NCBI GenBank assembly: GCA_037893225.1
Contig: JAZGUH010000378.1
Location: 427,001 to 491,000 of the forward strand
Reading direction: 5' to 3'
DNA length: 64,000 nt
DNA from: Hippasteria phrygiana
Lineage: Eukaryota; Echinodermata; Asteroidea; Valvatida; Goniasteridae
Below are positions 5,222-27,277 of the stretch, piece by piece (position 1 is the stretch's first letter; the number at the start of each line of letters is the position of its first letter). The notes under the pieces were generated by a model, which had not been told where the DNA came from, did no database searches, and saw nothing but the letters and a program-made list of their open reading frames with translations. The position numbers and the translations under genes were made by a program.

Positions 5222-5267
<46 letters not shown>

Positions 5268-5273
5268 TCCGGC
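5222..5273 (-). pseudogene. tRNA-Phe truncated at the array's left edge
   Basis: Only the 5' 52 nt remain, from the acceptor 5' strand to the start of the T stem. The break at 5221/5222 is the proposed Polinton insertion site. Confidence 0.9.
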
Positions 5274-5418
5274 TGTATTATGATCCCAATTCCTACCTTC
5301 ATGAGACTGTAAATGAAAAGTTGAAAGATAGGTGATGACGTAGACCTATTTCTGTGCGTTTTGTCTTTTAACATGCACAGTTTTCCTATTTCAAGAAACT
5401 TCAAAAATATAAACCGTT

Positions 5419-5435
5419 TGCCGGAACCCGGGACT

Positions 5436-5485
<50 letters not shown>

Positions 5486-5491
5486 TCCGGC
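5419..5491 (-). tRNA. tRNA-Phe(GAA) unit 1, variant
   Basis: A58G in the B box; T5 trailer. Confidence 0.75.
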
Positions 5492-5637
5492 TGTATTATG
5501 ATCCCAATTCCTACCTTCATGAGACTGTCAATGAAAAGTTTAAAGATAGGTGATGACGTAGACCTATTTCTGTGCGTTTTGTCTTTTAACATGTACAGTT
5601 TTCCTATTACAAGAAACTTCAAAAAATACAACCCGTT

Positions 5638-5654
5638 TGCCGGAACTCGGGATT

Positions 5655-5704
<50 letters not shown>

Positions 5705-5710
5705 TCCGGC
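5638..5710 (-). tRNA. tRNA-Phe(GAA) unit 2, variant
   Basis: G64A breaks a T-stem pair; T6 trailer. Confidence 0.75.
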
Positions 5711-5855
5711 TGTATTATGATCCCAATTCCTACCTTCATGAGACTGTAAATGAAAAGTTGAAAGATAGGTGATGACATAGACCTATTTCTTTGCGTTTTG
5801 TCTTTTAATATGCGCAGTTTTCTTATTACAAGAAACTTCACAAATAGAAACCGTT

Positions 5856-5891
5856 TGCCGGAACCCGGGATTGAACCAGGGACCTTCAGAA

Positions 5892-5922
<31 letters not shown>

Positions 5923-5928
5923 TCCGGC
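5856..5928 (-). tRNA. tRNA-Phe(GAA) unit 3, variant
   Basis: A38T in the anticodon loop; no close T4 run. Confidence 0.8.
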
Positions 5929-6073
5929 TGTATTATGATCCCAATTCCTACCTTCATGAGACTGTAAATGAAAAGTTGAAAGATAGGTGATGACGTAGAC
6001 CTATTTCTTTGCGTTTTGTCTTTTAATATGCGCAGTTTTCTTATTACAAGAAACTTCACAAATAGAAACCGTT

Positions 6074-6090
6074 TGCCGGAACCCGGGATT

Positions 6091-6140
<50 letters not shown>

Positions 6141-6146
6141 TCCGGC
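6074..6146 (-). tRNA. tRNA-Phe(GAA) unit 4
   Basis: Consensus; no close T4 run. Confidence 0.93.
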
Positions 6147-6291
6147 TGTATTATGATCCCAATTCCTACCTTCATGAGACTGTAAATGAAAAGTTGAAAG
6201 ATAGGTGATGACGTAGACCTATTTCTGTGCGTTTTGTCTTTTAATATGCACAGTTTTCCTATTACAAGAAACTTTACAAAAATAAACCGTT

Positions 6292-6308
6292 TGCCGGAAC
6301 CCGGGATT

Positions 6309-6358
<50 letters not shown>

Positions 6359-6364
6359 TCCGGC
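6292..6364 (-). tRNA. tRNA-Phe(GAA) unit 5
   Basis: Consensus; T5 trailer. Confidence 0.96.
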
Positions 6365-6513
6365 TGTATTATGATCCCAATTCCTACCTTCATGAGAATG
6401 GCAATGAAAAGTTGAGTTGAAAGATAGGTGATGACGTAGCCTATTTCTTTGCGTTTTGTCTCTTAATATGGGCAGTTTTCTTATTACAAGAAACTTCACA
6501 AATAGAAACCGTT

Positions 6514-6531
6514 TGCCGGAACCCGGGATTA

Positions 6532-6580
<49 letters not shown>

Positions 6581-6586
6581 TCCGGC
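6514..6586 (-). tRNA. tRNA-Phe(GAA) unit 6, variant
   Basis: C56T removes the invariant T-loop C and a B-box base; no close T4 run. Confidence 0.65.
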
Positions 6587-6735
6587 TGTATTATGATCCC
6601 AATTCCTACCTTCATGAGACTGGCAATGAAAAGTTGAGTTGAAAGATAGGTGATGACGTAGCCTATTTCTTTGCGTTTTGTCTCTTAATATGGGCAGTTT
6701 TCTTATTACAAGAAACTTCAAAAATACAACCCGTT

Positions 6736-6752
6736 TGCCGGAATCCGGGATT

Positions 6753-6802
<50 letters not shown>

Positions 6803-6808
6803 TCCGGC
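6736..6808 (-). tRNA. tRNA-Phe(GAA) unit 7, variant
   Basis: G65A opens the first T-stem pair; T5 trailer. Confidence 0.75.
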
Positions 6809-6953
6809 TGTATTATGATCCCAATTCCTACCTTCATGAGACTGTAAATGAAAAGTTGAAAGATAGGTGATGACGTAGACCTATTTCTGTGCGTTTTGTC
6901 TTTTAACATGCACAGTTTTCCTATTACAAGAAACTTTACAAAAATAAACCGTT

Positions 6954-6970
6954 TGCCGGAACCCGGGATT

Positions 6971-7020
<50 letters not shown>

Positions 7021-7026
7021 TCCGGC
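6954..7026 (-). tRNA. tRNA-Phe(GAA) unit 8
   Basis: Consensus; T5 trailer. Confidence 0.96.
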
Positions 7027-7175
7027 TGTATTATGATCCCAATTCCTACCTTCATGAGACTGGCAATGAAAAGTTGAGTTGAAAGATAGGTGATGACGTA
7101 GCCTATTTCTTTGCGTTTTGTCTCTTAATATGGGCAGTTTTCTTATTACAAGAAACTTCAAAAATACAACCCGTT

Positions 7176-7192
7176 TGCCGGAACCCGGGATT

Positions 7193-7242
<50 letters not shown>

Positions 7243-7248
7243 TCCGGC
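7176..7248 (-). tRNA. tRNA-Phe(GAA) unit 9
   Basis: Consensus; T5 trailer. Confidence 0.96.
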
Positions 7249-7393
7249 TGTATTATGATCCCAATTCCTACCTTCATGAGACTGTAAATGAAAAGTTGAA
7301 AGATAGGTGATGACGTAGACCTATTTCTGTGCGTTTTGTCTTTTAACATGCACAGTTTTCCTATTACAAGAAACTTCAAAAATATAATCCGTT

Positions 7394-7410
7394 TGCCGGA
7401 ACCCGGGATT

Positions 7411-7460
<50 letters not shown>

Positions 7461-7466
7461 TCCGGA
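7394..7466 (-). tRNA. tRNA-Phe(GAA) unit 10, variant
   Basis: G1T gives a 1:72 mismatch; T5 trailer. Confidence 0.75.
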
Positions 7467-7612
7467 TGTATTATGATCCCAATTCCTACCTTCATGAGAC
7501 TGGCAATGAAAAGTTGCGTTGAAAGATAGGTGATGACGTATATTTCTGTGCGCTTTGTCTTTTAATAAGCGCAGTTTTCTTAATACAAGAAACTTCACAA
7601 ATAAAAACCGTT

Positions 7613-7649
7613 TGCCGGAACCCGGGATTGAACCAGGGACTATTCCGGC
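7613..7649 (-). pseudogene. 37-nt tRNA-Phe minihelix, unit 11
   Basis: D and anticodon arms deleted; acceptor and T arm intact; B box kept; T5 directly behind. Confidence 0.9.
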
Positions 7650-7795
7650 TGTATTATGATCCCAATTCCTACCTTCATGAGACTGTAAATGAAAAGTTGA
7701 AAGATAGGTGATGACGTAGACGTATTTCTATGCGTTTTGTCATTTATCATGCGCAGTTTTCTTATTACAAAAAAAATTCAGAAATAGAAACCGTT

Positions 7796-7868
7796 TGCCG
7801 GAACCCGGGATTGAACCACGGACCTTCAGATCTTCAGTCTTACGCTCTCCCAACTGAGCTATTCCGGC
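7796..7868 (-). tRNA. tRNA-Phe(GAA) unit 12, variant
   Basis: C28A and C50G, one mismatch in each of two stems; T8 further downstream. Confidence 0.65.
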
Positions 7869-8013
7869 TGTATTATGATCCCAATTCCTACCTTCATGAG
7901 ACTGTAAATGAAAAGTTGAAAGATAGGTGATGACATAGACCTATTTCTTTGCGTTTTGTCTTTTAATATGCGCAGTTTTCTTATTACAAGAAACTTTACA
8001 AAAATAAACCGTT

Positions 8014-8041
8014 TGCCGGAACCCGGGATTGAACCATGGAA

Positions 8042-8080
<39 letters not shown>

Positions 8081-8086
8081 TCCGGC
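8014..8086 (-). tRNA. tRNA-Phe(GAA) unit 13, variant
   Basis: G46T and C50A; T5 trailer. Confidence 0.65.
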
Positions 8087-8235
8087 TGTATTATGATCCC
8101 AATTCCTAACTTCATGAGACTGGCAATGAAAAGTTGAGTTGAAAGATAGGTGATGACGTAGCCTATTTCTTTGCGTTTTGTCTCTTAATATGGGCAGTTT
8201 TCTTATTACAAGAAACTTCAAAAATACAACCCGTT

Positions 8236-8252
8236 TGCCGGAACCCGGGATT

Positions 8253-8302
<50 letters not shown>

Positions 8303-8308
8303 TCCGGC
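8236..8308 (-). tRNA. tRNA-Phe(GAA) unit 14
   Basis: Consensus; T5 trailer. Confidence 0.96.
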
Positions 8309-8453
8309 TGTATTATGATCCCAATTCCTACCTTCATGAGACTGTAAATGAAAAGTTGAAAGATAGGTGATGACGTAGACCTATTTCTGTGCGTTTTGTC
8401 TTTTAACATGCACAGTTTTCCTATTACAAGAAACTTCAAAAATATAATCCGTT

Positions 8454-8470
8454 TGCCGGAACCCGGGATT

Positions 8471-8520
<50 letters not shown>

Positions 8521-8526
8521 TCCGGA
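8454..8526 (-). tRNA. tRNA-Phe(GAA) unit 15, variant
   Basis: G1T; T5 trailer. Confidence 0.75.
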
Positions 8527-8672
8527 TGTATTATGATCCCAATTCCTACCTTCATGAGACTGGCAATGAAAAGTTGCGTTGAAAGATAGGTGATGACGTA
8601 TATTTCTGTGCGCTTTGTCTTTTAATAAGCGCAGTTTTCTTAATACAAGAAACTTCACAAATAAAAACCGTT

Positions 8673-8709
8673 TGCCGGAACCCGGGATTGAACCAGGGAC
8701 TATTCCGGC
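8673..8709 (-). pseudogene. 37-nt tRNA-Phe minihelix, unit 16
   Basis: Same deletion as unit 11. Confidence 0.9.
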
Positions 8710-8855
8710 TGTATTATGATCCCAATTCCTACCTTCATGAGACTGTAAATGAAAAGTTGAAAGATAGGTGATGACGTAGACGTATTTCTATGCGTTTTGT
8801 CATTTATCATGCGCAGTTTTCTTATTACAAAAAAAATTCAGAAATAGAAACCGTT

Positions 8856-8928
8856 TGCCGGAACCCGGGATTGAACCAGGGACCTTCAGATCTTCAGTCT
8901 TACGCTCTCCCAACTGAGCTATTCCGGC
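8856..8928 (-). tRNA. tRNA-Phe(GAA) unit 17, variant
   Basis: C28A only; T8 downstream. Confidence 0.7.
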
Positions 8929-9078
8929 TGTATTATGATCCCAATTCCTACCTTCATGAGACTGGCAATGAAAAGTTGCGTTGAAAGATAGGTGATGACA
9001 TAGACCTATTTCTTTGCGTTTTGTCTTTTAATATGCGCAGTTTTCTTATTACAAGAAACTTCACAAATAGAAACCGTT

Positions 9079-9095
9079 TGCCGGAACCCGGGATT

Positions 9096-9145
<50 letters not shown>

Positions 9146-9151
9146 TCCGGC
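9079..9151 (-). tRNA. tRNA-Phe(GAA) unit 18
   Basis: Consensus; no close T4 run. Confidence 0.93.
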
Positions 9152-9300
9152 TGTATTATGATCCCAATTCCTACCTTCATGAGACTGTAAATGAAAAGTT
9201 GAGTTGAAAGATAGGTGATGACGTAGCCTATTTCTTTGCGTTTTGTCTCTTAATATGGGCAGTTTTCTTATTACAAGAAACTTCAAAAATACAACCCGTT

Positions 9301-9316
9301 TGCCGGAACCCGGGAT

Positions 9317-9355
<39 letters not shown>

Positions 9356-9361
9356 TCCGGC
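9301..9361 (-). pseudogene. tRNA-Phe unit 19 with T-arm deletion
   Basis: 12 nt missing (T stem 5' strand and loop), so the B box is lost; anticodon arm intact. Confidence 0.9.
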
Positions 9362-9506
9362 TGTATTATGATCCCAATTCCTACCTTCATGAGACTGTAA
9401 ATGAAAAGTTGAAAGATAGGTGATGACATAGACCTATTTCTTTGCGTTTTGTCTTTTAATATGGGCAGTTTTCTTATTACAAGAAACTTCACAAATAGAA
9501 ACCGTT

Positions 9507-9523
9507 TGCCGGAACCCGGGATT

Positions 9524-9566
<43 letters not shown>

Positions 9567-9579
9567 TAGCTATTCCGGC
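9507..9579 (-). tRNA. tRNA-Phe(GAA) unit 20, variant
   Basis: C13A in the D stem and A box; no close T4 run. Confidence 0.7.
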
Positions 9580-9728
9580 TGTATTATGATCCCAATTCCT
9601 ACCTTCATGAGACTGGCAATGAAAAGTTGAGTTGAAAGATAGGTGATGACGTAGCCTATTTCTTTGCGTTTTGTCTCTTAATATGGGCAGTTTTCTTATT
9701 ACAAGAAACTTCAAAAATACAACCCGTT

Positions 9729-9745
9729 TGCCGGAACCCGGGATT

Positions 9746-9795
<50 letters not shown>

Positions 9796-9801
9796 TCCGG
9801 C
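9729..9801 (-). tRNA. tRNA-Phe(GAA) unit 21
   Basis: Consensus; T5 trailer. Confidence 0.96.
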
Positions 9802-9946
9802 TGTATTATGATCCCAATTCCTACCTTCATGAGACTGTAAATGAAAAGTTGAAAGATAGGTGATGACGTAGACCTATTTCTGTGCGTTTTGTCTTTTAAC
9901 ATGCACAGTTTTCCTATTTCAAGAAACTTCAAAAATATAAACCGTT

Positions 9947-9963
9947 TGCCGGAACCCGGGACT

Positions 9964-10013
<50 letters not shown>

Positions 10014-10019
10014 TCCGGC
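9947..10019 (-). tRNA. tRNA-Phe(GAA) unit 22, variant
   Basis: A58G; T5 trailer. Confidence 0.75.
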
Positions 10020-10168
10020 TGTATTATGATCCCAATTCCTACCTTCATGAGACTGTCAATGAAAAGTTGAGTTGAAAGATAGGTGATGACGTAGCCTATT
10101 TCTTTGCGTTTTGTCTCTTAATATGGGCAGTTTTCTTATTACAAGACACTTCAAAAATATAATCCGTT

Positions 10169-10185
10169 TGCCGGAACCCGGGATT

Positions 10186-10235
<50 letters not shown>

Positions 10236-10241
10236 TCCGGA
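10169..10241 (-). tRNA. tRNA-Phe(GAA) unit 23, variant
   Basis: G1T; T5 trailer. Confidence 0.75.
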
Positions 10242-10387
10242 TGTATTATGATCCCAATTCCTACCTTCATGAGACTGGCAATGAAAAGTTGCGTTGAAAG
10301 ATAGGTGATGACGTATATTTCTGTGCGCTTTGTCTTTTAATAAGCGCAGTTTTCTTAATACAAGAAACTTCACAAATAAAAACCGTT

Positions 10388-10424
10388 TGCCGGAACCCGG
10401 GATTGAACCAGGGACTATTGCGGC
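10388..10424 (-). pseudogene. 37-nt tRNA-Phe minihelix, unit 24
   Basis: Same deletion as unit 11, plus one change in the acceptor 5' strand (+ strand reads TTGCGGC). Confidence 0.88.
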
Positions 10425-10570
10425 TGTATTATGATCCCAATTCCTACCTTCATGAGACTGTAAATGAAAAGTTGAAAGATAGGTGATGACGTAGACGTAT
10501 TTCTATGCGTTTTGTCATTTATCATGCGCAGTTTTCTTATTACAAAAAAAATTCAGAAATAGAAACCGTT

Positions 10571-10643
10571 TGCCGGAACCCGGGATTGAACCACGGACCT
10601 TCAGATCTTCAGTCTTACGCTCTCCCAACTGAGCTATTCCGGC
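10571..10643 (-). tRNA. tRNA-Phe(GAA) unit 25, variant
   Basis: C28A and C50G; T8 downstream. Confidence 0.65.
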
Positions 10644-10788
10644 TGTATTATGATCCCAATTCCTACCTTCATGAGACTGTAAATGAAAAGTTGAAAGATA
10701 GGTGATGACATAGACCTATTTCTTTGCGTTTTGTCTTTTAATATGCGCAGTTTTCTTATTACAAGAAACTTTACAAAAATAAACCGTT

Positions 10789-10816
10789 TGCCGGAACCCG
10801 GGATTGAACCATGGAA

Positions 10817-10855
<39 letters not shown>

Positions 10856-10861
10856 TCCGGC
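10789..10861 (-). tRNA. tRNA-Phe(GAA) unit 26, variant
   Basis: G46T and C50A; T5 trailer. Confidence 0.65.
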
Positions 10862-11010
10862 TGTATTATGATCCCAATTCCTAACTTCATGAGACTGGCA
10901 ATGAAAAGTTGAGTTGAAAGATAGGTGATGACGTAGCCTATTTCTTTGCGTTTTGTCTCTTAATATGGGCAGTTTTCTTATTACAAGAAACTTCAAAAAT
11001 ACAACCCGTT

Positions 11011-11027
11011 TGCCGGAACCCGGGATT

Positions 11028-11077
<50 letters not shown>

Positions 11078-11083
11078 TCCGGC
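11011..11083 (-). tRNA. tRNA-Phe(GAA) unit 27
   Basis: Consensus; T5 trailer. Confidence 0.96.
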
Positions 11084-11228
11084 TGTATTATGATCCCAAT
11101 TCCTACCTTCATGAGACTGTAAATGAAAAGTTGAAAGATAGGTGATGACGTAGACCTATTTCTGTGCGTTTTGTCTTTTAACATGCACAGTTTTCCTATT
11201 ACAAGAAACTTCAAAAATATAATCCGTT

Positions 11229-11245
11229 TGCCGGAACCCGGGATT

Positions 11246-11295
<50 letters not shown>

Positions 11296-11301
11296 TCCGG
11301 A
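11229..11301 (-). tRNA. tRNA-Phe(GAA) unit 28, variant
   Basis: G1T; T5 trailer. Confidence 0.75.
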
Positions 11302-11447
11302 TGTATTATGATCCCAATTCCTACCTTCATGAGACTGGCAATGAAAAGTTGCGTTGAAAGATAGGTGATGACGTATATTTCTGTGCGCTTTGTCTTTTAA
11401 TAAGCGCAGTTTTCTTAATACAAGAAACTTCACAAATAAAAACCGTT

Positions 11448-11484
11448 TGCCGGAACCCGGGATTGAACCAGGGACTATTCCGGC
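11448..11484 (-). pseudogene. 37-nt tRNA-Phe minihelix, unit 29
   Basis: Same deletion as unit 11. Confidence 0.9.
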
Positions 11485-11630
11485 TGTATTATGATCCCAA
11501 TTCCTACCTTCATGAGACTGTAAATGAAAAGTTGAAAGATAGGTGATGACGTAGACGTATTTCTATGCGTTTTGTCATTTATCATGCGCAGTTTTCTTAT
11601 TACAAAAAAAAATCAGAAATAGAAACCGTT

Positions 11631-11703
11631 TGCCGGAACCCGGGATTGAACCAGGGACCTTCAGATCTTCAGTCTTACGCTCTCCCAACTGAGCTATTCC
11701 GGC
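11631..11703 (-). tRNA. tRNA-Phe(GAA) unit 30, variant
   Basis: C28A; T9 downstream. Confidence 0.7.
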
Positions 11704-11853
11704 TGTATTATGATCCCAATTCCTACCTTCATGAGACTGGCAATGAAAAGTTGCGTTGAAAGATAGGTGATGACATAGACCTATTTCTTTGCGTTTTGTC
11801 TTTTAATATGCGCAGTTTTCTTATTACAAGAAACTTCACAAATAGAAACCGTT

Positions 11854-11870
11854 TGCCGGAACCCGGGATT

Positions 11871-11920
<50 letters not shown>

Positions 11921-11926
11921 TCCGGC
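11854..11926 (-). tRNA. tRNA-Phe(GAA) unit 31
   Basis: Consensus; no close T4 run. Confidence 0.93.
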
Positions 11927-12076
11927 TGTATTATGATCCCAATTCCTACCTTCATGAGACTGGCAATGAAAAGTTGCGTTGAAAGATAGGTGATGACATA
12001 GACCTATTTCTTTGCGTTTTGTCTTTTAATATGCGCAGTTTTCTTATTACAAGAAACTTCACAAATAGAAACCGTT

Positions 12077-12093
12077 TGCCGGAACCCGGGATT

Positions 12094-12143
<50 letters not shown>

Positions 12144-12149
12144 TCCGGC
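12077..12149 (-). tRNA. tRNA-Phe(GAA) unit 32
   Basis: Consensus; no close T4 run. Local duplicate of unit 31. Confidence 0.93.
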
Positions 12150-12298
12150 TGTATTATGATCCCAATTCCTACCTTCATGAGACTGTAAATGAAAAGTTGA
12201 GTTGAAAGATAGGTGATGACGTAGCCTATTTCTTTGCGTTTTGTCTCTTAATATGGGCAGTTTTCTTATTACAAGAAACTTCAAAAATACAACACGTT

Positions 12299-12314
12299 TG
12301 CCGGAACCCGGGAT

Positions 12315-12353
<39 letters not shown>

Positions 12354-12359
12354 TCCGGC
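12299..12359 (-). pseudogene. tRNA-Phe unit 33 with T-arm deletion
   Basis: Same deletion as unit 19; trailer has a private C-to-A change (ACACG), shared with unit 36. Confidence 0.9.
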
Positions 12360-12504
12360 TGTATTATGATCCCAATTCCTACCTTCATGAGACTGTAAAT
12401 GAAAAGTTGAAAGATAGGTGATGACATAGACCTATTTCTTTGCGTTTTGTCTTTTAATATGCGCAGTTTTCTTATTACAAGAAACTTCACAAATAGAAAC
12501 CGTT

Positions 12505-12521
12505 TGCCGGAACCCGGGATT

Positions 12522-12571
<50 letters not shown>

Positions 12572-12577
12572 TCCGGC
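12505..12577 (-). tRNA. tRNA-Phe(GAA) unit 34
   Basis: Consensus; no close T4 run. Confidence 0.93.
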
Positions 12578-12743: not shown

Positions 12744-12793
<50 letters not shown>

Positions 12794-19878: not shown

Positions 19879-20024
19879 TGTATTATGATCCCAATTCCTA
19901 CCTTCATGAGACTGTAAATGAAAAGTTGAAAGATAGGTGATGACGTAGACGTATTTCTATGCGTTTTGTCATTTATCATGCGCAGTTTTCTTATTACAAA
20001 AAAAATTCAGAAATAGAAACCGTT

Positions 20025-20097
20025 TGCCGGAACCCGGGATTGAACCAGGGACCTTCAGATCTTCAGTCTTACGCTCTCCCAACTGAGCTATTCCGGC
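20025..20097 (-). tRNA. tRNA-Phe(GAA) unit 69, variant
   Basis: C28A; T8 downstream. Confidence 0.7.
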
Positions 20098-20247
20098 TGT
20101 ATTATGATCCCAATTCCTACCTTCATGAGACTGGCAATGAAAAGTTGCGTTGAAAGATAGGTGATGACATAGACCTATTTCTTTGCGTTTTGTCTTTTAA
20201 TATGCGCAGTTTTCTTATTACAAGAAACTTCACAAATAGAAACCGTT

Positions 20248-20264
20248 TGCCGGAACCCGGGATT

Positions 20265-20314
<50 letters not shown>

Positions 20315-20320
20315 TCCGGC
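20248..20320 (-). tRNA. tRNA-Phe(GAA) unit 70
   Basis: Consensus; no close T4 run. Confidence 0.93.
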
Positions 20321-20469
20321 TGTATTATGATCCCAATTCCTACCTTCATGAGACTGTAAATGAAAAGTTGAGTTGAAAGATAGGTGATGACGTAGCCTAT
20401 TTCTTTGCGTTTTGTCTCTTAATATGGGCAGTTTTCTTATTACAAGAAACTTCAAAAATACAACCCGTT

Positions 20470-20485
20470 TGCCGGAACCCGGGAT

Positions 20486-20524
<39 letters not shown>

Positions 20525-20530
20525 TCCGGC
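20470..20530 (-). pseudogene. tRNA-Phe unit 71 with T-arm deletion
   Basis: Same deletion as unit 19. Confidence 0.9.
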
Positions 20531-20675
20531 TGTATTATGATCCCAATTCCTACCTTCATGAGACTGTAAATGAAAAGTTGAAAGATAGGTGATGACATAG
20601 ACCTATTTCTTTGCGTTTTGTCTTTTAATATGGGCAGTTTTCTTATTACAAGAAACTTCACAAATAGAAACCGTT

Positions 20676-20692
20676 TGCCGGAACCCGGGATT

Positions 20693-20735
<43 letters not shown>

Positions 20736-20748
20736 TAGCTATTCCGGC
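20676..20748 (-). tRNA. tRNA-Phe(GAA) unit 72, variant
   Basis: C13A; no close T4 run. Confidence 0.7.
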
Positions 20749-20897
20749 TGTATTATGATCCCAATTCCTACCTTCATGAGACTGGCAATGAAAAGTTGAG
20801 TTGAAAGATAGGTGATGACGTAGCCTATTTCTTTGCGTTTTGTCTCTTAATATGGGCAGTTTTCTTATTACAAGAAACTTCAAAAATACAACCCGTT

Positions 20898-20914
20898 TGC
20901 CGGAACCCGGGATT

Positions 20915-20964
<50 letters not shown>

Positions 20965-20970
20965 TCCGGC
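20898..20970 (-). tRNA. tRNA-Phe(GAA) unit 73
   Basis: Consensus; T5 trailer. Confidence 0.96.
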
Positions 20971-21115
20971 TGTATTATGATCCCAATTCCTACCTTCATG
21001 AGACTGTAAATGAAAAGTTGAAAGATAGGTGATGACGTAGACCTATTTCTGTGCGTTTTGTCTTTTAACATGCACAGTTTTCCTATTTCAAGAAACTTCA
21101 AAAATATAAACCGTT

Positions 21116-21132
21116 TGCCGGAACCCGGGACT

Positions 21133-21182
<50 letters not shown>

Positions 21183-21188
21183 TCCGGC
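21116..21188 (-). tRNA. tRNA-Phe(GAA) unit 74, variant
   Basis: A58G; T5 trailer. Confidence 0.75.
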
Positions 21189-21337
21189 TGTATTATGATC
21201 CCAATTCCTACCTTCATGAGACTGTCAATGAAAAGTTGAGTTGAAAGATAGGTGATGACGTAGCCTATTTCTTTGCGTTTTGTCTCTTAATATGGGCAGT
21301 TTTCTTATTACAAGACACTTCAAAAATATAATCCGTT

Positions 21338-21354
21338 TGCCGGAACCCGGGATT

Positions 21355-21404
<50 letters not shown>

Positions 21405-21410
21405 TCCGGA
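21338..21410 (-). tRNA. tRNA-Phe(GAA) unit 75, variant
   Basis: G1T; T5 trailer. Confidence 0.75.
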
Positions 21411-21556
21411 TGTATTATGATCCCAATTCCTACCTTCATGAGACTGGCAATGAAAAGTTGCGTTGAAAGATAGGTGATGACGTATATTTCTGTGCGCTTT
21501 GTCTTTTAATAAGCGCAGTTTTCTTAATACAAGAAACTTCACAAATAAAAACCGTT

Positions 21557-21593
21557 TGCCGGAACCCGGGATTGAACCAGGGACTATTCCGGC
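21557..21593 (-). pseudogene. 37-nt tRNA-Phe minihelix, unit 76
   Basis: Same deletion as unit 11. Confidence 0.9.
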
Positions 21594-21739
21594 TGTATTA
21601 TGATCCCAATTCCTACCTTCATGAGACTGTAAATGAAAAGTTGAAAGATAGGTGATGACGTAGACGTATTTCTATGCGTTTTGTCATTTATCATGCGCAG
21701 TTTTCTTATTACAAAAAAAATTCAGAAATAGAAACCGTT

Positions 21740-21812
21740 TGCCGGAACCCGGGATTGAACCACGGACCTTCAGATCTTCAGTCTTACGCTCTCCCAACTG
21801 AGCTATTCCGGC
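21740..21812 (-). tRNA. tRNA-Phe(GAA) unit 77, variant
   Basis: C28A and C50G; T8 downstream. Confidence 0.65.
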
Positions 21813-21957
21813 TGTATTATGATCCCAATTCCTACCTTCATGAGACTGTAAATGAAAAGTTGAAAGATAGGTGATGACATAGACCTATTTCTTTGCGTTT
21901 TGTCTTTTAATATGCGCAGTTTTCTTATTACAAGAAACTTTACAAAAATAAACCGTT

Positions 21958-21985
21958 TGCCGGAACCCGGGATTGAACCATGGAA

Positions 21986-22024
<39 letters not shown>

Positions 22025-22030
22025 TCCGGC
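21958..22030 (-). tRNA. tRNA-Phe(GAA) unit 78, variant
   Basis: G46T and C50A; T5 trailer. Confidence 0.65.
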
Positions 22031-22179
22031 TGTATTATGATCCCAATTCCTAACTTCATGAGACTGGCAATGAAAAGTTGAGTTGAAAGATAGGTGATGA
22101 CGTAGCCTATTTCTTTGCGTTTTGTCTCTTAATATGGGCAGTTTTCTTATTACAAGAAACTTCAAAAATACAACCCGTT

Positions 22180-22196
22180 TGCCGGAACCCGGGATT

Positions 22197-22246
<50 letters not shown>

Positions 22247-22252
22247 TCCGGC
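22180..22252 (-). tRNA. tRNA-Phe(GAA) unit 79
   Basis: Consensus; T5 trailer. Confidence 0.96.
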
Positions 22253-22397
22253 TGTATTATGATCCCAATTCCTACCTTCATGAGACTGTAAATGAAAAGT
22301 TGAAAGATAGGTGATGACGTAGACCTATTTCTGTGCGTTTTGTCTTTTAACATGCACAGTTTTCCTATTACAAGAAACTTCAAAAATATAATCCGTT

Positions 22398-22414
22398 TGC
22401 CGGAACCCGGGATT

Positions 22415-22464
<50 letters not shown>

Positions 22465-22470
22465 TCCGGA
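22398..22470 (-). tRNA. tRNA-Phe(GAA) unit 80, variant
   Basis: G1T; T5 trailer. Confidence 0.75.
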
Positions 22471-22616
22471 TGTATTATGATCCCAATTCCTACCTTCATG
22501 AGACTGGCAATGAAAAGTTGCGTTGAAAGATAGGTGATGACGTATATTTCTGTGCGCTTTGTCTTTTAATAAGCGCAGTTTTCTTAATACAAGAAACTTC
22601 ACAAATAAAAACCGTT

Positions 22617-22653
22617 TGCCGGAACCCGGGATTGAACCAGGGACTATTCCGGC
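22617..22653 (-). pseudogene. 37-nt tRNA-Phe minihelix, unit 81
   Basis: Same deletion as unit 11. Confidence 0.9.
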
Positions 22654-22799
22654 TGTATTATGATCCCAATTCCTACCTTCATGAGACTGTAAATGAAAAG
22701 TTGAAAGATAGGTGATGACGTAGACGTATTTCTATGCGTTTTGTCATTTATCATGCGCAGTTTTCTTATTACAAAAAAAATTCAGAAATAGAAACCGTT

Positions 22800-22872
22800 T
22801 GCCGGAACCCGGGATTGAACCAGGGACCTTCAGATCTTCAGTCTTACGCTCTCCCAACTGAGCTATTCCGGC
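22800..22872 (-). tRNA. tRNA-Phe(GAA) unit 82, variant
   Basis: C28A; T8 downstream. Confidence 0.7.
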
Positions 22873-23022
22873 TGTATTATGATCCCAATTCCTACCTTCA
22901 TGAGACTGGCAATGAAAAGTTGCGTTGAAAGATAGGTGATGACATAGACCTATTTCTTTGCGTTTTGTCTTTTAATATGCGCAGTTTTCTTATTACAAGA
23001 AACTTCACAAATAGAAACCGTT

Positions 23023-23039
23023 TGCCGGAACCCGGGATT

Positions 23040-23089
<50 letters not shown>

Positions 23090-23095
23090 TCCGGC
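23023..23095 (-). tRNA. tRNA-Phe(GAA) unit 83
   Basis: Consensus; no close T4 run. Confidence 0.93.
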
Positions 23096-23244
23096 TGTAT
23101 TATGATCCCAATTCCTACCTTCATGAGACTGTAAATGAAAAGTTGAGTTGAAAGATAGGTGATGACGTAGCCTATTTCTTTGCGTTTTGTCTCTTAATAT
23201 GGGCAGTTTTCTTATTACAAGAAACTTCAAAAATACAACCCGTT

Positions 23245-23260
23245 TGCCGGAACCCGGGAT

Positions 23261-23299
<39 letters not shown>

Positions 23300-23305
23300 T
23301 CCGGC
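23245..23305 (-). pseudogene. tRNA-Phe unit 84 with T-arm deletion
   Basis: Same deletion as unit 19. Confidence 0.9.
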
Positions 23306-23450
23306 TGTATTATGATCCCAATTCCTACCTTCATGAGACTGTAAATGAAAAGTTGAAAGATAGGTGATGACATAGACCTATTTCTTTGCGTTTTGTCTTT
23401 TAATATGGGCAGTTTTCTTATTACAAGAAACTTCACAAATAGAAACCGTT

Positions 23451-23467
23451 TGCCGGAACCCGGGATT

Positions 23468-23510
<43 letters not shown>

Positions 23511-23523
23511 TAGCTATTCCGGC
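23451..23523 (-). tRNA. tRNA-Phe(GAA) unit 85, variant
   Basis: C13A; no close T4 run. Confidence 0.7.
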
Positions 23524-23672
23524 TGTATTATGATCCCAATTCCTACCTTCATGAGACTGGCAATGAAAAGTTGAGTTGAAAGATAGGTGATGACGTAGCC
23601 TATTTCTTTGCGTTTTGTCTCTTAATATGGGCAGTTTTCTTATTACAAGAAACTTCAAAAATACAACCCGTT

Positions 23673-23689
23673 TGCCGGAACCCGGGATT

Positions 23690-23739
<50 letters not shown>

Positions 23740-23745
23740 TCCGGC
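23673..23745 (-). tRNA. tRNA-Phe(GAA) unit 86
   Basis: Consensus; T5 trailer. Confidence 0.96.
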
Positions 23746-23890
23746 TGTATTATGATCCCAATTCCTACCTTCATGAGACTGTAAATGAAAAGTTGAAAGA
23801 TAGGTGATGACGTAGACCTATTTCTGTGCGTTTTGTCTTTTAACATGCACAGTTTTCCTATTTCAAGAAACTTCAAAAATATAAACCGTT

Positions 23891-23907
23891 TGCCGGAACC
23901 CGGGACT

Positions 23908-23957
<50 letters not shown>

Positions 23958-23963
23958 TCCGGC
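23891..23963 (-). tRNA. tRNA-Phe(GAA) unit 87, variant
   Basis: A58G; T5 trailer. Confidence 0.75.
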
Positions 23964-24113
23964 TGTATTATGATCCCAATTCCTACCTTCATGAGACTGT
24001 CAATGAAAAGTTGAGTTGAAAGATAGGTGATGACGTAGCCTATTTCTTTGCGTTTTGTCTCTTAATATGGGCAGTTTTCTTATTACAAGACACTTCAAAA
24101 AATACAACCCGTT

Positions 24114-24130
24114 TGCCGGAACTCGGGATT

Positions 24131-24180
<50 letters not shown>

Positions 24181-24186
24181 TCCGGC
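24114..24186 (-). tRNA. tRNA-Phe(GAA) unit 88, variant and chimeric
   Basis: G64A; T6 trailer. Its far spacer matches the unit 23/75 type and its trailer and body the unit 2/40 type, so a crossover lies near 24091-24105. Confidence 0.75.
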
Positions 24187-24331
24187 TGTATTATGATCCC
24201 AATTCCTACCTTCATGAGACTGTAAATGAAAAGTTGAAAGATAGGTGATGACATAGACCTATTTCTTTGCGTTTTGTCTTTTAATATGCGCAGTTTTCTT
24301 ATTACAAGAAACTTCACAAATAGAAACCGTT

Positions 24332-24367
24332 TGCCGGAACCCGGGATTGAACCAGGGACCTTCAGAA

Positions 24368-24398
<31 letters not shown>

Positions 24399-24404
24399 TC
24401 CGGC
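24332..24404 (-). tRNA. tRNA-Phe(GAA) unit 89, variant
   Basis: A38T; no close T4 run. Confidence 0.8.
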
Positions 24405-24549
24405 TGTATTATGATCCCAATTCCTACCTTCATGAGACTGTCAATGAAAAGTTGAAAGATAGGTGATGACGTAGACCTATTTCTTTGCGTTTTGTCTTTT
24501 AATATGCGCAGTTTTCTTATTACAAGAAACTTCACAAATAGAAACCGTT

Positions 24550-24566
24550 TGCCGGAACCCGGGATT

Positions 24567-24616
<50 letters not shown>

Positions 24617-24622
24617 TCCGGC
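24550..24622 (-). tRNA. tRNA-Phe(GAA) unit 90
   Basis: Consensus; no close T4 run. Confidence 0.93.
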
Positions 24623-24767
24623 TGTATTATGATCCCAATTCCTACCTTCATGAGACTGTAAATGAAAAGTTGAAAGATAGGTGATGACGTAGACCTATTT
24701 CTGTGCGTTTTGTCTTTTAACATGCACAGTTTTCCTATTACAAGAAACTTTAAAAAAATAAACCGTT

Positions 24768-24784
24768 TTCCGGAACCCGGGATT

Positions 24785-24834
<50 letters not shown>

Positions 24835-24840
24835 TCCGGC
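24768..24840 (-). tRNA. tRNA-Phe(GAA) unit 91, variant
   Basis: C72A opens the 1:72 pair; T7 trailer. Confidence 0.7.
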
Positions 24841-24989
24841 TGTATTATGATCCCAATTCCTACCTTCATGAGACTGGCAATGAAAAGTTGAGTTGAAAGA
24901 TAGGTGATGACGTAGCCTATTTCTTTGCGTTTTGTCTCTTAATATGGGCAGTTTTCTTATTACAAGAAACTTCAAAAATACAACCCGTT

Positions 24990-25006
24990 TGCCGGAACCC
25001 GGGATT

Positions 25007-25056
<50 letters not shown>

Positions 25057-25062
25057 TCCGGC
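24990..25062 (-). tRNA. tRNA-Phe(GAA) unit 92
   Basis: Consensus; T5 trailer. Confidence 0.96.
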
Positions 25063-25207
25063 TGTATTATGATCCCAATTCCTACCTTCATGAGACTGTA
25101 AATGAAAAGTTGAAAGATAGGTGATGACGTAGACATATTTCTGTGCGTTTTGTCTTTTAACATGCACAGTTTTCCTATTACAAGAAACTTCAAAAATATA
25201 ATCCGTT

Positions 25208-25224
25208 TGCCGGAACCCGGGATT

Positions 25225-25274
<50 letters not shown>

Positions 25275-25280
25275 TCCGGC
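25208..25280 (-). tRNA. tRNA-Phe(GAA) unit 93
   Basis: Consensus, although its trailer is the type usually paired with G1T; T5. Confidence 0.96.
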
Positions 25281-25426
25281 TGTATTATGATCCCAATTCC
25301 TACCTTCATGAGACTGGCAATGAAAAGTTGCGTTGAAAGATAGGTGATGACGTATATTTCTGTGCGCTTTGTCTTTTAATAAGCGCAGTTTTCTTAATAC
25401 AAGAAACTTCACAAATAAAAACCGTT

Positions 25427-25463
25427 TGCCGGAACCCGGGATTGAACCAGGGACTATTCCGGC
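25427..25463 (-). pseudogene. 37-nt tRNA-Phe minihelix, unit 94
   Basis: Same deletion as unit 11. Confidence 0.9.
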
Positions 25464-25608
25464 TGTATTATGATCCCAATTCCTACCTTCATGAGACTGT
25501 AAATGAAAAGTTGAAAGATAGGTGATGACGTAGACGTATTTCTATGCGTTTTGTCATTTATCATGCGCAGTTTTCTTATTACAAGAAACTTCACAAATAG
25601 AAACCGTT

Positions 25609-25625
25609 TGCCGGAACCCGGGATT

Positions 25626-25675
<50 letters not shown>

Positions 25676-25681
25676 TCCGGA
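25609..25681 (-). tRNA. tRNA-Phe(GAA) unit 95, variant
   Basis: G1T joined to the terminator-less trailer type, an unusual pairing suggesting exchange. Confidence 0.75.
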
Positions 25682-25830
25682 TGTATTATGATCCCAATTC
25701 CTACCTTCATGAGACTGTAAATGAAAAGTTGAGTTGAAAGATAGGTGATGACGTAGCCTATTTCTTTGCGTTTTGTCTCTTAATATGGGCAGTTTTCTTA
25801 TTACAAGAAACTTCAAAAATACAACCCGTT

Positions 25831-25846
25831 TGCCGGAACCCGGGAT

Positions 25847-25885
<39 letters not shown>

Positions 25886-25891
25886 TCCGGC
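25831..25891 (-). pseudogene. tRNA-Phe unit 96 with T-arm deletion
   Basis: Same deletion as unit 19. Confidence 0.9.
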
Positions 25892-26036
25892 TGTATTATG
25901 ATCCCAATTCCTACCTTCATGAGACTGTAAATGAAAAGTTGAAAGATAGGTGATGACATAGACCTATTTCTTTGCGTTTTGTCTTTTAATATGCGCAGTT
26001 TTCTTATTACAAGAAACTTCACAAATAGAAACCGTT

Positions 26037-26053
26037 TGCCGGAACCCGGGATT

Positions 26054-26103
<50 letters not shown>

Positions 26104-26109
26104 TCCGGC
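26037..26109 (-). tRNA. tRNA-Phe(GAA) unit 97
   Basis: Consensus; no close T4 run. Confidence 0.93.
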
Positions 26110-26254
26110 TGTATTATGATCCCAATTCCTACCTTCATGAGACTGTAAATGAAAAGTTGAAAGATAGGTGATGACGTAGACCTATTTCTGTGCGTTTTGT
26201 CTTTTAACATGCACAGTTTTCCTATTACAAGAAACTTAAAAAAAATAAACCGTT

Positions 26255-26271
26255 TGCCGGAACCCGGGATT

Positions 26272-26321
<50 letters not shown>

Positions 26322-26327
26322 TCCGGC
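26255..26327 (-). tRNA. tRNA-Phe(GAA) unit 98
   Basis: Consensus; T8 trailer. Confidence 0.96.
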
Positions 26328-26476
26328 TGTATTATGATCCGAATTCCTACCTTCATGAGACTGGCAATGAAAAGTTGAGTTGAAAGATAGGTGATGACGT
26401 AGCCTATTTCTTTGCGTTTTGTCTCTTAATATGGGCAGTTTTCTTATTACAAGAAACTTCAAAAATACAACCCGTT

Positions 26477-26493
26477 TGCCGGAACCCGGGATT

Positions 26494-26543
<50 letters not shown>

Positions 26544-26549
26544 TCCGGC
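26477..26549 (-). tRNA. tRNA-Phe(GAA) unit 99
   Basis: Consensus; T5 trailer. Confidence 0.96.
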
Positions 26550-26694
26550 TGTATTATGATCCCAATTCCTACCTTCATGAGACTGTAAATGAAAAGTTGA
26601 AAGATAGGTGATGACGTAGACCTATTTCTGTGCGTTTTGTCTTTTAACATGCACAGTTTTCCTATTTCAAGAAACTTCAAAAATATAAACCGTT

Positions 26695-26711
26695 TGCCGG
26701 AACCCGGGATT

Positions 26712-26761
<50 letters not shown>

Positions 26762-26767
26762 TCCGGC
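26695..26767 (-). tRNA. tRNA-Phe(GAA) unit 100
   Basis: Consensus (A58 restored relative to its relatives, units 1/22); T5 trailer. Confidence 0.96.
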
Positions 26768-26912
26768 TGTATTATGATCCCAATTCCTACCTTCATGAGA
26801 CTGTCAATGAAAAGTTGAAAGATAGGTGATGACGTAGACCTATTTCTGTGCGTTTTGTCTTTTAACATGCACAGTTTTCCTATTACAAGAAACTTCAAAA
26901 ATATAATCCGTT

Positions 26913-26929
26913 TGCCGGAACCCGGGATT

Positions 26930-26979
<50 letters not shown>

Positions 26980-26985
26980 TCCGGC
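26913..26985 (-). tRNA. tRNA-Phe(GAA) unit 101
   Basis: Consensus; T5 trailer. Confidence 0.96.
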
Positions 26986-27135
26986 TGTATTATGATCCCA
27001 ATTCCTACCTTCATGAGACTGGCAATGAAAAGTTGCGTTGAAAGATAGGTGATGACGTTAACCTATTTCTGTGCGTTTTGTCTTTTAACATGCACAGTTT
27101 TCCTATTACAAGAAACTTTAAAAAAATAAACCGTT

Positions 27136-27152
27136 TTCCGGAACCCGGGATT

Positions 27153-27202
<50 letters not shown>

Positions 27203-27208
27203 TCCGGC
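27136..27208 (-). tRNA. tRNA-Phe(GAA) unit 102, variant
   Basis: C72A; T7 trailer. Last unit before the retrotransposon. Confidence 0.7.
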
Positions 27209-27277
27209 TGTATTATGATCCCAATTCCTACCTTCATGAGACTGGAAATGAAAAGTTGAAAGATAGGTGATGACGAA

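What the first reader, a model, noticed from the sequence alone, without database searches (positions are those of the whole stretch)
5222..27277. One tRNA gene expanded into a 22-kb satellite: 102 tandem tRNA-Phe(GAA) units
All units share strand, spacing and Pol III boxes; 37 are consensus. A single isoacceptor at this copy number is far beyond decoding need in most animals. It could serve Phe-tRNA supply, tRNA fragments, chromatin boundary or replication-pausing functions, or be a selfish satellite.
Basis: partly seen in the sequence, partly recalled or inferred. Interest (0 to 1): 0.92.

Follow-up and report, generated by a model that had tools for sequence, protein, structure and literature searches.

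The report
Giant tRNA-Phe gene satellite, 220 kilobases
This unnamed 944-million-base genome carries hundreds of copies of one phenylalanine tRNA gene in a row about 220,000 bases long, with similar rows for other tRNAs, likely a stockpiling device like the egg-cell tRNA arrays of frogs and fish.

Summary
Confirmed, and ten times larger than reported. Window 5222-27277 holds 102 same-strand units (183-223 bp); 37 tRNAs are consensus, ARAGORN, and 18 units carry deletions removing the A box and anticodon (11) or the B box core (7). The window shows only the right end: the array spans about C378:245.7-465.3 kb (219.6 kb; estimated 877 units), interrupted by a PolB element, a tyrosine-recombinase retroelement and a TIR-bounded segment. 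A 35-base tRNA-Phe pattern has 480 exact genome matches, 479 on one strand. The canonical tRNA-Phe, within 3 mismatches, was found at 2 places (C48); the array type differs from that gene by two compensatory pair swaps plus positions 16 and 57. Two further giant arrays exist: Tyr+Lys (about 303 kb) and initiator Met (at least 229 kb, sampled). tRNA sequence is 3 to 5.5 times less diverse than trailer and mid-spacer, yet broken units multiply as readily as intact ones. Best reading: functional Pol III supply arrays, likely oocyte/maternal as in Xenopus and zebrafish, maintained by unequal exchange. Expression is untested. The kind is known; this single-gene, short-unit form is a new variant.

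The parts
5222..27277 (-). Main block of the tRNA-Phe(GAA) array: 102 units in 34 distinct sequences, 37 with consensus tRNA
5222..5273 (-). Partial unit: 5' part of a tRNA-Phe gene cut by the PolB element; its 3' part lies left of the window in L013
5929..6146 (-). Example of a typical 218-bp unit (query unit)
6074..6146 (-). Example consensus tRNA-Phe(GAA) gene, 73 nt, 69.2 bits, all stem pairs intact
6128..6139 (-). A box region (tRNA positions 8-19) of that example; position by reading the sequence
   Evidence: sequence; box definition recalled
6085..6095 (-). B box region (tRNA positions 52-62, GGTTCAATCCC) of that example; position by reading the sequence
   Evidence: sequence; box definition recalled
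7467..7649 (-). First of 11 deletion-36 units (183 bp, no A box, no anticodon); nhmmer high ends of the others at 8701, 10416, 11476, 15817, 16877, 18810, 19870, 21585, 22645, 25455
9301..9361 (-). First of 7 deletion-12 tRNAs (61 nt, B box core lost); the others start at 12299, 12949, 17477, 20470, 23245, 25831
27278..32234 (+). Insertion in the array: Ngaro/DIRS-like tyrosine-recombinase retroelement (class name recalled): CCHC+RT ORF 27424-29562, Phage_integrase ORF 30278-31321, direct repeats 27275-27415/31517-31657, 27413-27474/31652-31713 and 31439-31529/32154-32244
32235..33112 (-). Array resumes: 4 diverged tRNA-Phe units
33115..38129 (.). Insertion in the array: segment bounded by a 17-bp inverted repeat (94% complementary), containing a LINE-type endonuclease/reverse-transcriptase region (ORFs within 34017-37573)
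38130..38300 (-). Right-most, degenerate array unit (41.8-bit tRNA match at 38176-38240)
1..5221 (.). Right part of a 14,241-bp insertion in the array (C378:417,981-432,221): 1431-aa PolB-like ORF 502-4797(-), ends identical as inverted repeats over all 40 bases compared, 5-bp target duplication inside a tRNA-Phe T arm

Best explanation
The feature is the right end of a 220-kb tandem array of an estimated 877 tRNA-Phe(GAA) gene units that is likely a functional bulk-supply locus, predicted to be transcribed by RNA polymerase III mainly in oocytes or early embryos, beside a small dispersed set of canonical tRNA-Phe genes. Shown: array size (part read, part sampled) and structure; hundreds of cloverleaf genes with A and B boxes; a distinct array isodecoder with two compensatory stem swaps; low diversity of the tRNA against its own spacer; sister arrays for Tyr+Lys and initiator Met. 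Inferred: units are copied and deleted in blocks by unequal crossing-over and conversion, which does not tell good units from broken ones; selection acts on the total yield of the array and slowly purges tRNA mutations. Inferred by analogy: the demand is maternal, because in Xenopus tandem tRNA genes are called oocyte-specific and in zebrafish maternally deposited tRNAs come from repetitive regions while later ones come from isolated genes.
For: Array extent: C378:377,001-417,980 is array apart from three stretches of about 300 bp without unit similarity; 10 of 10 1-kb samples at 257-368 kb contain array units, 0 of 10 at 238 kb and below; first whole unit near 245.77 kb. 480 exact matches to a 35-base D-to-anticodon pattern, 479 on one strand. 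In 283 units read, 109 carry the consensus tRNA and 30 more keep all pairs and invariant bases; 76 of the 109 have a T4+ run within 30 nt downstream, the other 33 at 91-105 nt. Diversity among 105 distinct unit types (258 units of 205-226 bp): tRNA 0.021, trailer 0.113, mid-spacer 0.068, 5' flank 0.050; 0 of 73 tRNA sites have a minor allele at 10% or more, against 20 of 145 other sites. Canonical tRNA-Phe within 3 mismatches at 2 places, both C48; the better of them differs from the array consensus at 5:68 and 28:42 (paired swaps), 16 and 57, and its flanks are unrelated. Sister arrays: Lys 217 matches, all on one strand; iMet 440 of 441 on one strand. Precedent: passages of PMC11417395, PMC11500080, PMC3565088.
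Against: No expression data. 144 of 283 units have indels, broken pairs or hit invariants. Mean copy number of distinct unit types is the same for consensus and other tRNAs (2.48 vs 2.49), so amplification ignores function. Twenty-one of 283 units carry the A-box/anticodon deletion. The array-versus-dispersed contrast is shown for Phe only; the two isolated Lys(TTT) genes seen each have one unpaired stem position by my reading. Not every isotype looks arrayed: Thr(GGT)-like sequences were found singly or in pairs on C331, C240 and C355, and further places on other contigs in the family search were not examined. The dispersed search would miss Phe genes more than 3 mismatches from the canonical sequence. 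The 5' flank is also fairly conserved and 7 of 218 placements of a 73-column window are as low as the tRNA, so part of the low diversity could be conversion bias.
Confidence: 0.5

Rival explanations
1. Neutral or selfish satellite: tRNA genes are recombination-prone and were amplified by unequal exchange with no benefit; most copies are silent.
For: Higher-order blocks with exact repeats to 3.2 kb; broken and intact unit types equally numerous; A-box/anticodon-deleted units amplified to 21 of 283; degenerate right edge as in ordinary satellites; three insertions of mobile elements.
Against: tRNA diversity 3.3 to 5.5 times below mid-spacer and trailer in the same units; four isotypes (Phe, Tyr, Lys, iMet) show the same kind of organisation on three contigs, which is odd for chance amplification; the array isodecoder keeps compensatory pairs.
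Confidence: 0.28
2. Constitutive main supply: the arrays are simply the ordinary tRNA genes of this species, used in all tissues, with no oocyte/somatic split.
For: Only 2 canonical Phe genes found elsewhere within 3 mismatches, so the array may be the principal Phe source; initiator Met, needed everywhere, is arrayed too.
Against: A separate canonical tRNA-Phe with its own flanks and a T6 run a few bases downstream persists; copy numbers of hundreds exceed usual somatic need (general knowledge).
Confidence: 0.14
3. Structural role: Pol III gene arrays as chromatin boundary, heterochromatin or replication-pause element, as proposed for the human 1q23.3 tRNA repeat (CTCF) and tRNA clusters generally.
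For: tRNA clusters are linked to barriers and fork pausing (passages of PMC2888827; abstract of PMC4041453).
Against: 220 kb is far more than a boundary needs (judgement); nothing here tests it; intact acceptor, anticodon and identity bases are not needed for it.
Confidence: 0.05
4. Assembly artefact: unit number inflated by mis-assembly.
For: Arrays are hard to assemble; no reads available.
Against: Many private unit variants, unique insertions inside the array, exact repeats no longer than about 3 kb in the 63 kb read, three arrays on three contigs.
Confidence: 0.03

Closest known systems
Xenopus oocyte-type tandem tRNA genes (dual oocyte/somatic tRNA genes)
   Same: Tandem, high-copy tRNA genes beside a separate small set; dual system for Xenopus tRNA genes stated in PMC3565088 (passage), oocyte-specific tandem arrays activated at zygotic genome activation in PMC11500080 (passage). 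Phe, Tyr, Lys and iMet are among the isotypes of the Xenopus repeat (recalled, from no call).
   Different: The Xenopus unit is about 3 kb with several different tRNAs (recalled); here Phe and iMet units hold one gene in about 220-245 bp and the three arrays lie on three contigs. Oocyte expression not tested here.
Zebrafish clustered tRNA genes on chromosome 4
   Same: Massive clusters; isolated genes encode later-stage isodecoders while maternally deposited tRNAs come from highly repetitive regions (discussion passage of PMC11417395).
   Different: Zebrafish clusters lie especially along one chromosome arm; here homogeneous arrays of one isotype, or of one Tyr-Lys pair, 200-300 kb long.
Entamoeba tRNA gene arrays
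   Same: tRNA genes organised into tandem arrays by small sets of isotypes, many copies, far beyond decoding need (PMC2652664, passages).
   Different: That paper reports no clear evidence of nonfunctional copies and units of up to 5 genes; here broken units are amplified. The telomere-substitute proposal there does not fit: this array lies inside a 1.7-Mb contig.
Arabidopsis SYY (Ser-Tyr-Tyr) tDNA cluster
   Same: Tandem tRNA genes with major and minor variants and tissue-specific use (PMC12308677, passages).
   Different: Tens of Tyr copies, heterogeneous unit, plant.
Human 1q23.3 tRNA tandem repeat
   Same: tRNA-bearing large tandem repeat with copy-number variation (PMC4041453, abstract and outline).
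   Different: 7.3-kb unit, 9-43 copies, CTCF site; tRNA genes under 6% of a unit versus one third here.

Membership tests
Nuclear tRNA-Phe gene | Cloverleaf scored by tRNA models, GAA anticodon | tested here: met
   84 of 102 main-block units by ARAGORN, 91 by cmscan; all pairs intact in the consensus
Nuclear tRNA-Phe gene | A box, B box and T4+ terminator close downstream | tested here: inconclusive
   Boxes in intact units; 11+7 of 102 lack one box; 76 of 109 consensus units have T4+ within 30 nt
Nuclear tRNA-Phe gene | Transcribed, charged with Phe | not testable with these tools
   No RNA data
Satellite DNA | Long head-to-tail array, homogenised, with higher-order structure and diverged edge | tested here: met
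Oocyte-type tDNA (dual tRNA gene system) | High-copy tandem array of the isodecoder | tested here: met
Oocyte-type tDNA (dual tRNA gene system) | Separate low-copy dispersed genes of a different isodecoder | tested here: met
   Met for Phe only: 2 places within 3 mismatches of the canonical sequence, C48; not established for Lys, Tyr, iMet
Oocyte-type tDNA (dual tRNA gene system) | Array active in oocytes, silent in soma | not testable with these tools
   No expression data
tRNA-derived SINE | Dispersed retroposed copies of tRNA plus body, on both strands | tested here: not met
   479 of 480 tRNA-Phe pattern matches are on one strand; unit search: 394 matches, the listed part all on C378:246-386 kb, the rest not listed
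Entamoeba-type tRNA arrays | Nearly all tRNA genes of the genome in arrays | tested here: inconclusive
   Phe, Tyr, Lys and iMet are arrayed; Thr(GGT)-like sequences are dispersed; Asp and dispersed-Tyr searches did not complete

The most novel reading that the evidence does not exclude
This invertebrate-like genome runs a dual tRNA system: many isotypes are carried as isotype-specific giant satellites of short single-gene units encoding special array isodecoders for the egg, next to a tiny dispersed canonical set for the soma, evolved independently of amphibians and fish.
Probability: 0.27. Interest if true: 0.82.

Novelty: new variant of a known kind. Interest (0 to 1): 0.66.

Why it matters
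tRNA genes are usually thought of as small dispersed families. Here single tRNA genes have become satellites of 200-300 kb, for at least four isotypes, and the Phe array encodes a version distinguishable by sequence from the canonical gene. That makes the old question whether arrayed tRNA genes are egg supplies or evolutionary junk directly testable with ordinary tRNA-seq, because the two Phe types differ at six positions. It also gives a natural system for watching how unequal exchange and selection share control of a functional RNA satellite.

Tried and rejected
Considered and rejected: a tRNA-derived SINE (479 of 480 matches on one strand; no dispersed unit copies among the listed matches); a coding satellite (minus-strand ORFs of up to 247 aa run through units, but most unit lengths are not multiples of three, so frames break; not pursued); the array as a passenger of a TIR transposon (first suspected from the 17-bp inverted repeat, but that repeat bounds an insertion into the array). 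CpG decay as a sign of germ-line methylation was looked at and gave nothing decisive (1 transition allele at 8 tRNA CpG sites; CpG observed/expected 0.82 in the array, 1.02 in window 38301-64000). Search of viral contigs for the tRNA core: 0 matches. Pfam gave no family for the PolB-like ORF at E 0.001 and only sub-threshold ones at E 10; its identity rests on relatives that carry PF03175. Initiator Met was chosen as a control expected to be dispersed and turned out to be arrayed. Searches for COX1, dispersed Tyr and Asp did not complete.
Full report
CHECK OF THE OBSERVATION. ARAGORN tRNA-Phe genes in it and cmscan 91 (not counting the partial one at 5205-5273); 11 units carry a 36-nt deletion that removes the A box and anticodon, and the 7 units that only cmscan sees carry a 12-nt deletion in the T arm. 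Unit lengths are 183 to 223 bp. The 102 units comprise only 34 distinct sequences, arranged in recurring blocks; the longest exact repeat is 3,228 bp.

TRUE EXTENT. The window is G000:C378:427001-491000 of a 944-Mb assembly. To the right of 27277 lies an Ngaro/DIRS-like retroelement with split direct repeats and a tyrosine recombinase; the array then resumes at 32235-33112, is broken again by a 5-kb segment with a 17-bp inverted repeat at its ends, and ends in a degenerate unit at 38130-38300. To the left, window 1-5221 is the right part of a 14,241-bp insertion with a PolB-like ORF, ends that are identical as inverted repeats over all 40 bases compared, and a 5-bp target duplication, in the T arm of an array tRNA; most of its interior was not examined. 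Beyond it the array continues: C378:377,001-417,980 is array apart from three stretches of about 300 bp, with 154 ARAGORN tRNA-Phe genes and 72 consensus tRNAs; 10 of 10 one-kb samples between 257 and 368 kb contain array units and 0 of 10 at 238 kb and below do (the sample at 327 kb also has a gap of about 300 bp); the first whole unit is near 245.77 kb. The span is 219.6 kb, or 195.4 kb without the three insertions, an estimated 877 units. A 35-base pattern through the D and anticodon arms has 480 exact matches in the genome, 479 on one strand; the first listed is on C234, the other listed ones are in this array, and the rest were not listed. From 109 consensus tRNAs in the 63 kb read and 20 in 15 one-kb samples I estimate roughly 280 consensus genes in all (extrapolation).

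ARRAY ISODECODER VERSUS CANONICAL GENE. The first has all stems paired by my reading; the second has one acceptor mismatch. A third canonical-type copy, on C234, is split by a 32-nt insertion in the T arm and is not called by ARAGORN. The array consensus differs from the better C48 gene at positions 5, 16, 28, 42, 57 and 68; 5:68 and 28:42 are pairs and both changed together. Flanks of the C48 genes do not resemble those of the array by eye. So at least for Phe there is a two-part gene set: a few canonical genes and a distinct isodecoder in hundreds of copies. Phe genes more than 3 mismatches from the canonical sequence would have been missed.

CONSTRAINT. Among 105 distinct unit types (the 258 of 283 units that are 205-226 bp long), mean diversity is 0.021 in the tRNA, 0.113 in the 3' trailer, 0.068 in the middle of the spacer and 0.050 in the 55-bp 5' flank; 0 of 73 tRNA sites but 20 of the other 145 sites have a minor allele at 10% or more. 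Sliding a 73-column window around the unit, 7 of 218 placements are as low as the tRNA. The 34 types of the window alone gave the same order (0.022, 0.090, 0.076, 0.027). Recency cannot explain a difference between parts of the same unit, so selection or biased conversion must. Against this, consensus tRNAs (44 types, 109 units) and others (70 types, 174 units) have the same mean multiplicity, 2.48 and 2.49: block amplification is blind to tRNA quality. Of 283 units, 109 are consensus, 30 keep all pairs and invariants, 96 have broken pairs or hit invariants, 48 have indels; 21 carry the 36-nt deletion. Of the 109 consensus units, 76 have T4 or more within 30 nt downstream; the other 33 have their first T4+ run 91-105 nt downstream.

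SISTER ARRAYS. C375 from 515.1 to 818.7 kb carries, wherever sampled, repeats of about 1.17 kb with oppositely oriented tRNA-Tyr (ARAGORN with introns allowed names it Tyr(GTA) with a 9-10-nt intron) and tRNA-Lys(TTT); 126 tRNAs were tallied in 12 sampled loci; a thirteenth, at 640 kb, has a Tyr and two Thr-like sequences; none was found at 460, 490, 500, 825, 850 and 900 kb. The array-type Lys 3' half has 217 exact genome matches, all on one strand; those listed are all on C375. Initiator Met, which I picked as a control that should be dispersed, has 441 exact matches, 440 on one strand; those listed are all on C4:621,357-678,318, 7 of 7 samples from 650 to 850 kb contain initiator tRNA-Met genes, and the sample at 618 kb and the 6 at 865 kb and beyond do not. 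Thus four isotypes are arrayed on three contigs. I took Phe from the finding, Tyr and Lys because a family search ranked Lys first (which scored 63 of 120,239 candidates), and only iMet blind. Not everything is arrayed: Thr(GGT)-like sequences appeared singly or in pairs on C331, C240 and C355, isolated Lys genes on C222 and C591, and further places on other contigs were not examined.

MECHANISM. I commit to a supply function: arrays of array-specific isodecoders, likely transcribed by Pol III for the oocyte or early embryo, kept in number and similarity by unequal exchange, with selection on total output. The shown steps are structure, constraint and the isodecoder split; transcription, tissue and benefit are inferred. 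The strongest support for the tissue is analogy: in zebrafish, isodecoders of later stages come from isolated genes and maternally deposited tRNAs from repetitive regions (PMC11417395, discussion passage); in Xenopus tandemly arrayed tRNA genes are called oocyte-specific and are activated at zygotic genome activation (PMC11500080, passage), and dual tRNA gene systems are described (PMC3565088, passage, which also reports about 150,000 tRNA genes in the newt Pleurodeles). The main rival is a satellite that is mostly silent.

COMPARISON AND NOVELTY. Tandem tRNA arrays are known in amphibians, zebrafish, Entamoeba (PMC2652664, passages), Arabidopsis (PMC12308677, passages) and human 1q23.3 (PMC4041453, abstract and outline); 89% of tDNAs are clustered in Nematostella (PMC2888827, passages). 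My paper searches (listings with abstract beginnings) showed no report of a single-gene short-unit tRNA array of this length in an invertebrate; the library holds only part of the literature. I therefore rate it a new variant of a known kind.

Noticed in passing
L016-L023, L061, L062, L064, L065 (C375:515-819 kb): Second giant array: 1.17-kb units with oppositely oriented tRNA-Tyr (with intron) and tRNA-Lys(TTT), about 303 kb by sampling
   Followed up: partly
L072-L077, L079, L080, L087 (C4:621-851 kb): Third giant array: initiator tRNA-Met units of about 244 bp, at least 229 kb by sampling, 441 exact pattern matches genome-wide
   Followed up: partly
window 1-5221 and L013 from 981: 14,241-bp virus-like, possibly Polinton-like insertion with a PolB-like ORF (relatives carry PF03175) in the T arm of an array tRNA gene; inverted-repeat ends, 5-bp target duplication; described only
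   Followed up: partly
window 27278-32234: Ngaro/DIRS-like retroelement with split direct repeats inside the array; closest named relatives mostly in bivalves
   Followed up: partly
window 33115-38129: 5-kb segment with 17-bp inverted terminal repeat inserted in the array, carrying LINE-type endonuclease and RT reading frames in several pieces
   Followed up: no
L011 and L012: Eight array tRNA-Phe genes have anticodon AAA instead of GAA
   Followed up: no
L069 (C234:1882024): Canonical-type tRNA-Phe whose T arm is split by a 32-nt insertion; possible pseudogene
   Followed up: no
window 51564-51638 (+): Called tRNA-Tyr by ARAGORN, but its sequence resembles the genome's dispersed Thr(GGT)-like copies (L026-L028), perhaps a tRNA-derived repeat family
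   Followed up: no
L063 (C375:640 kb): Oppositely oriented pair of tRNA-Thr-like sequences inside the Tyr-Lys array
   Followed up: no
L014 3469-3544 (+), C378:494.5 kb: Isolated tRNA-Phe-like stretch (49 bits) on the other strand, 29 kb right of the array, not called by ARAGORN
   Followed up: no
window 46230-47438 (+): ORF with a GH3 domain; best of 3 homologues 60% identical, unnamed
   Followed up: no
window 58264-58630, 61648-61963, 63843-64000: Minisatellites (21-bp and 12-bp units), not related to the tRNA array
   Followed up: no
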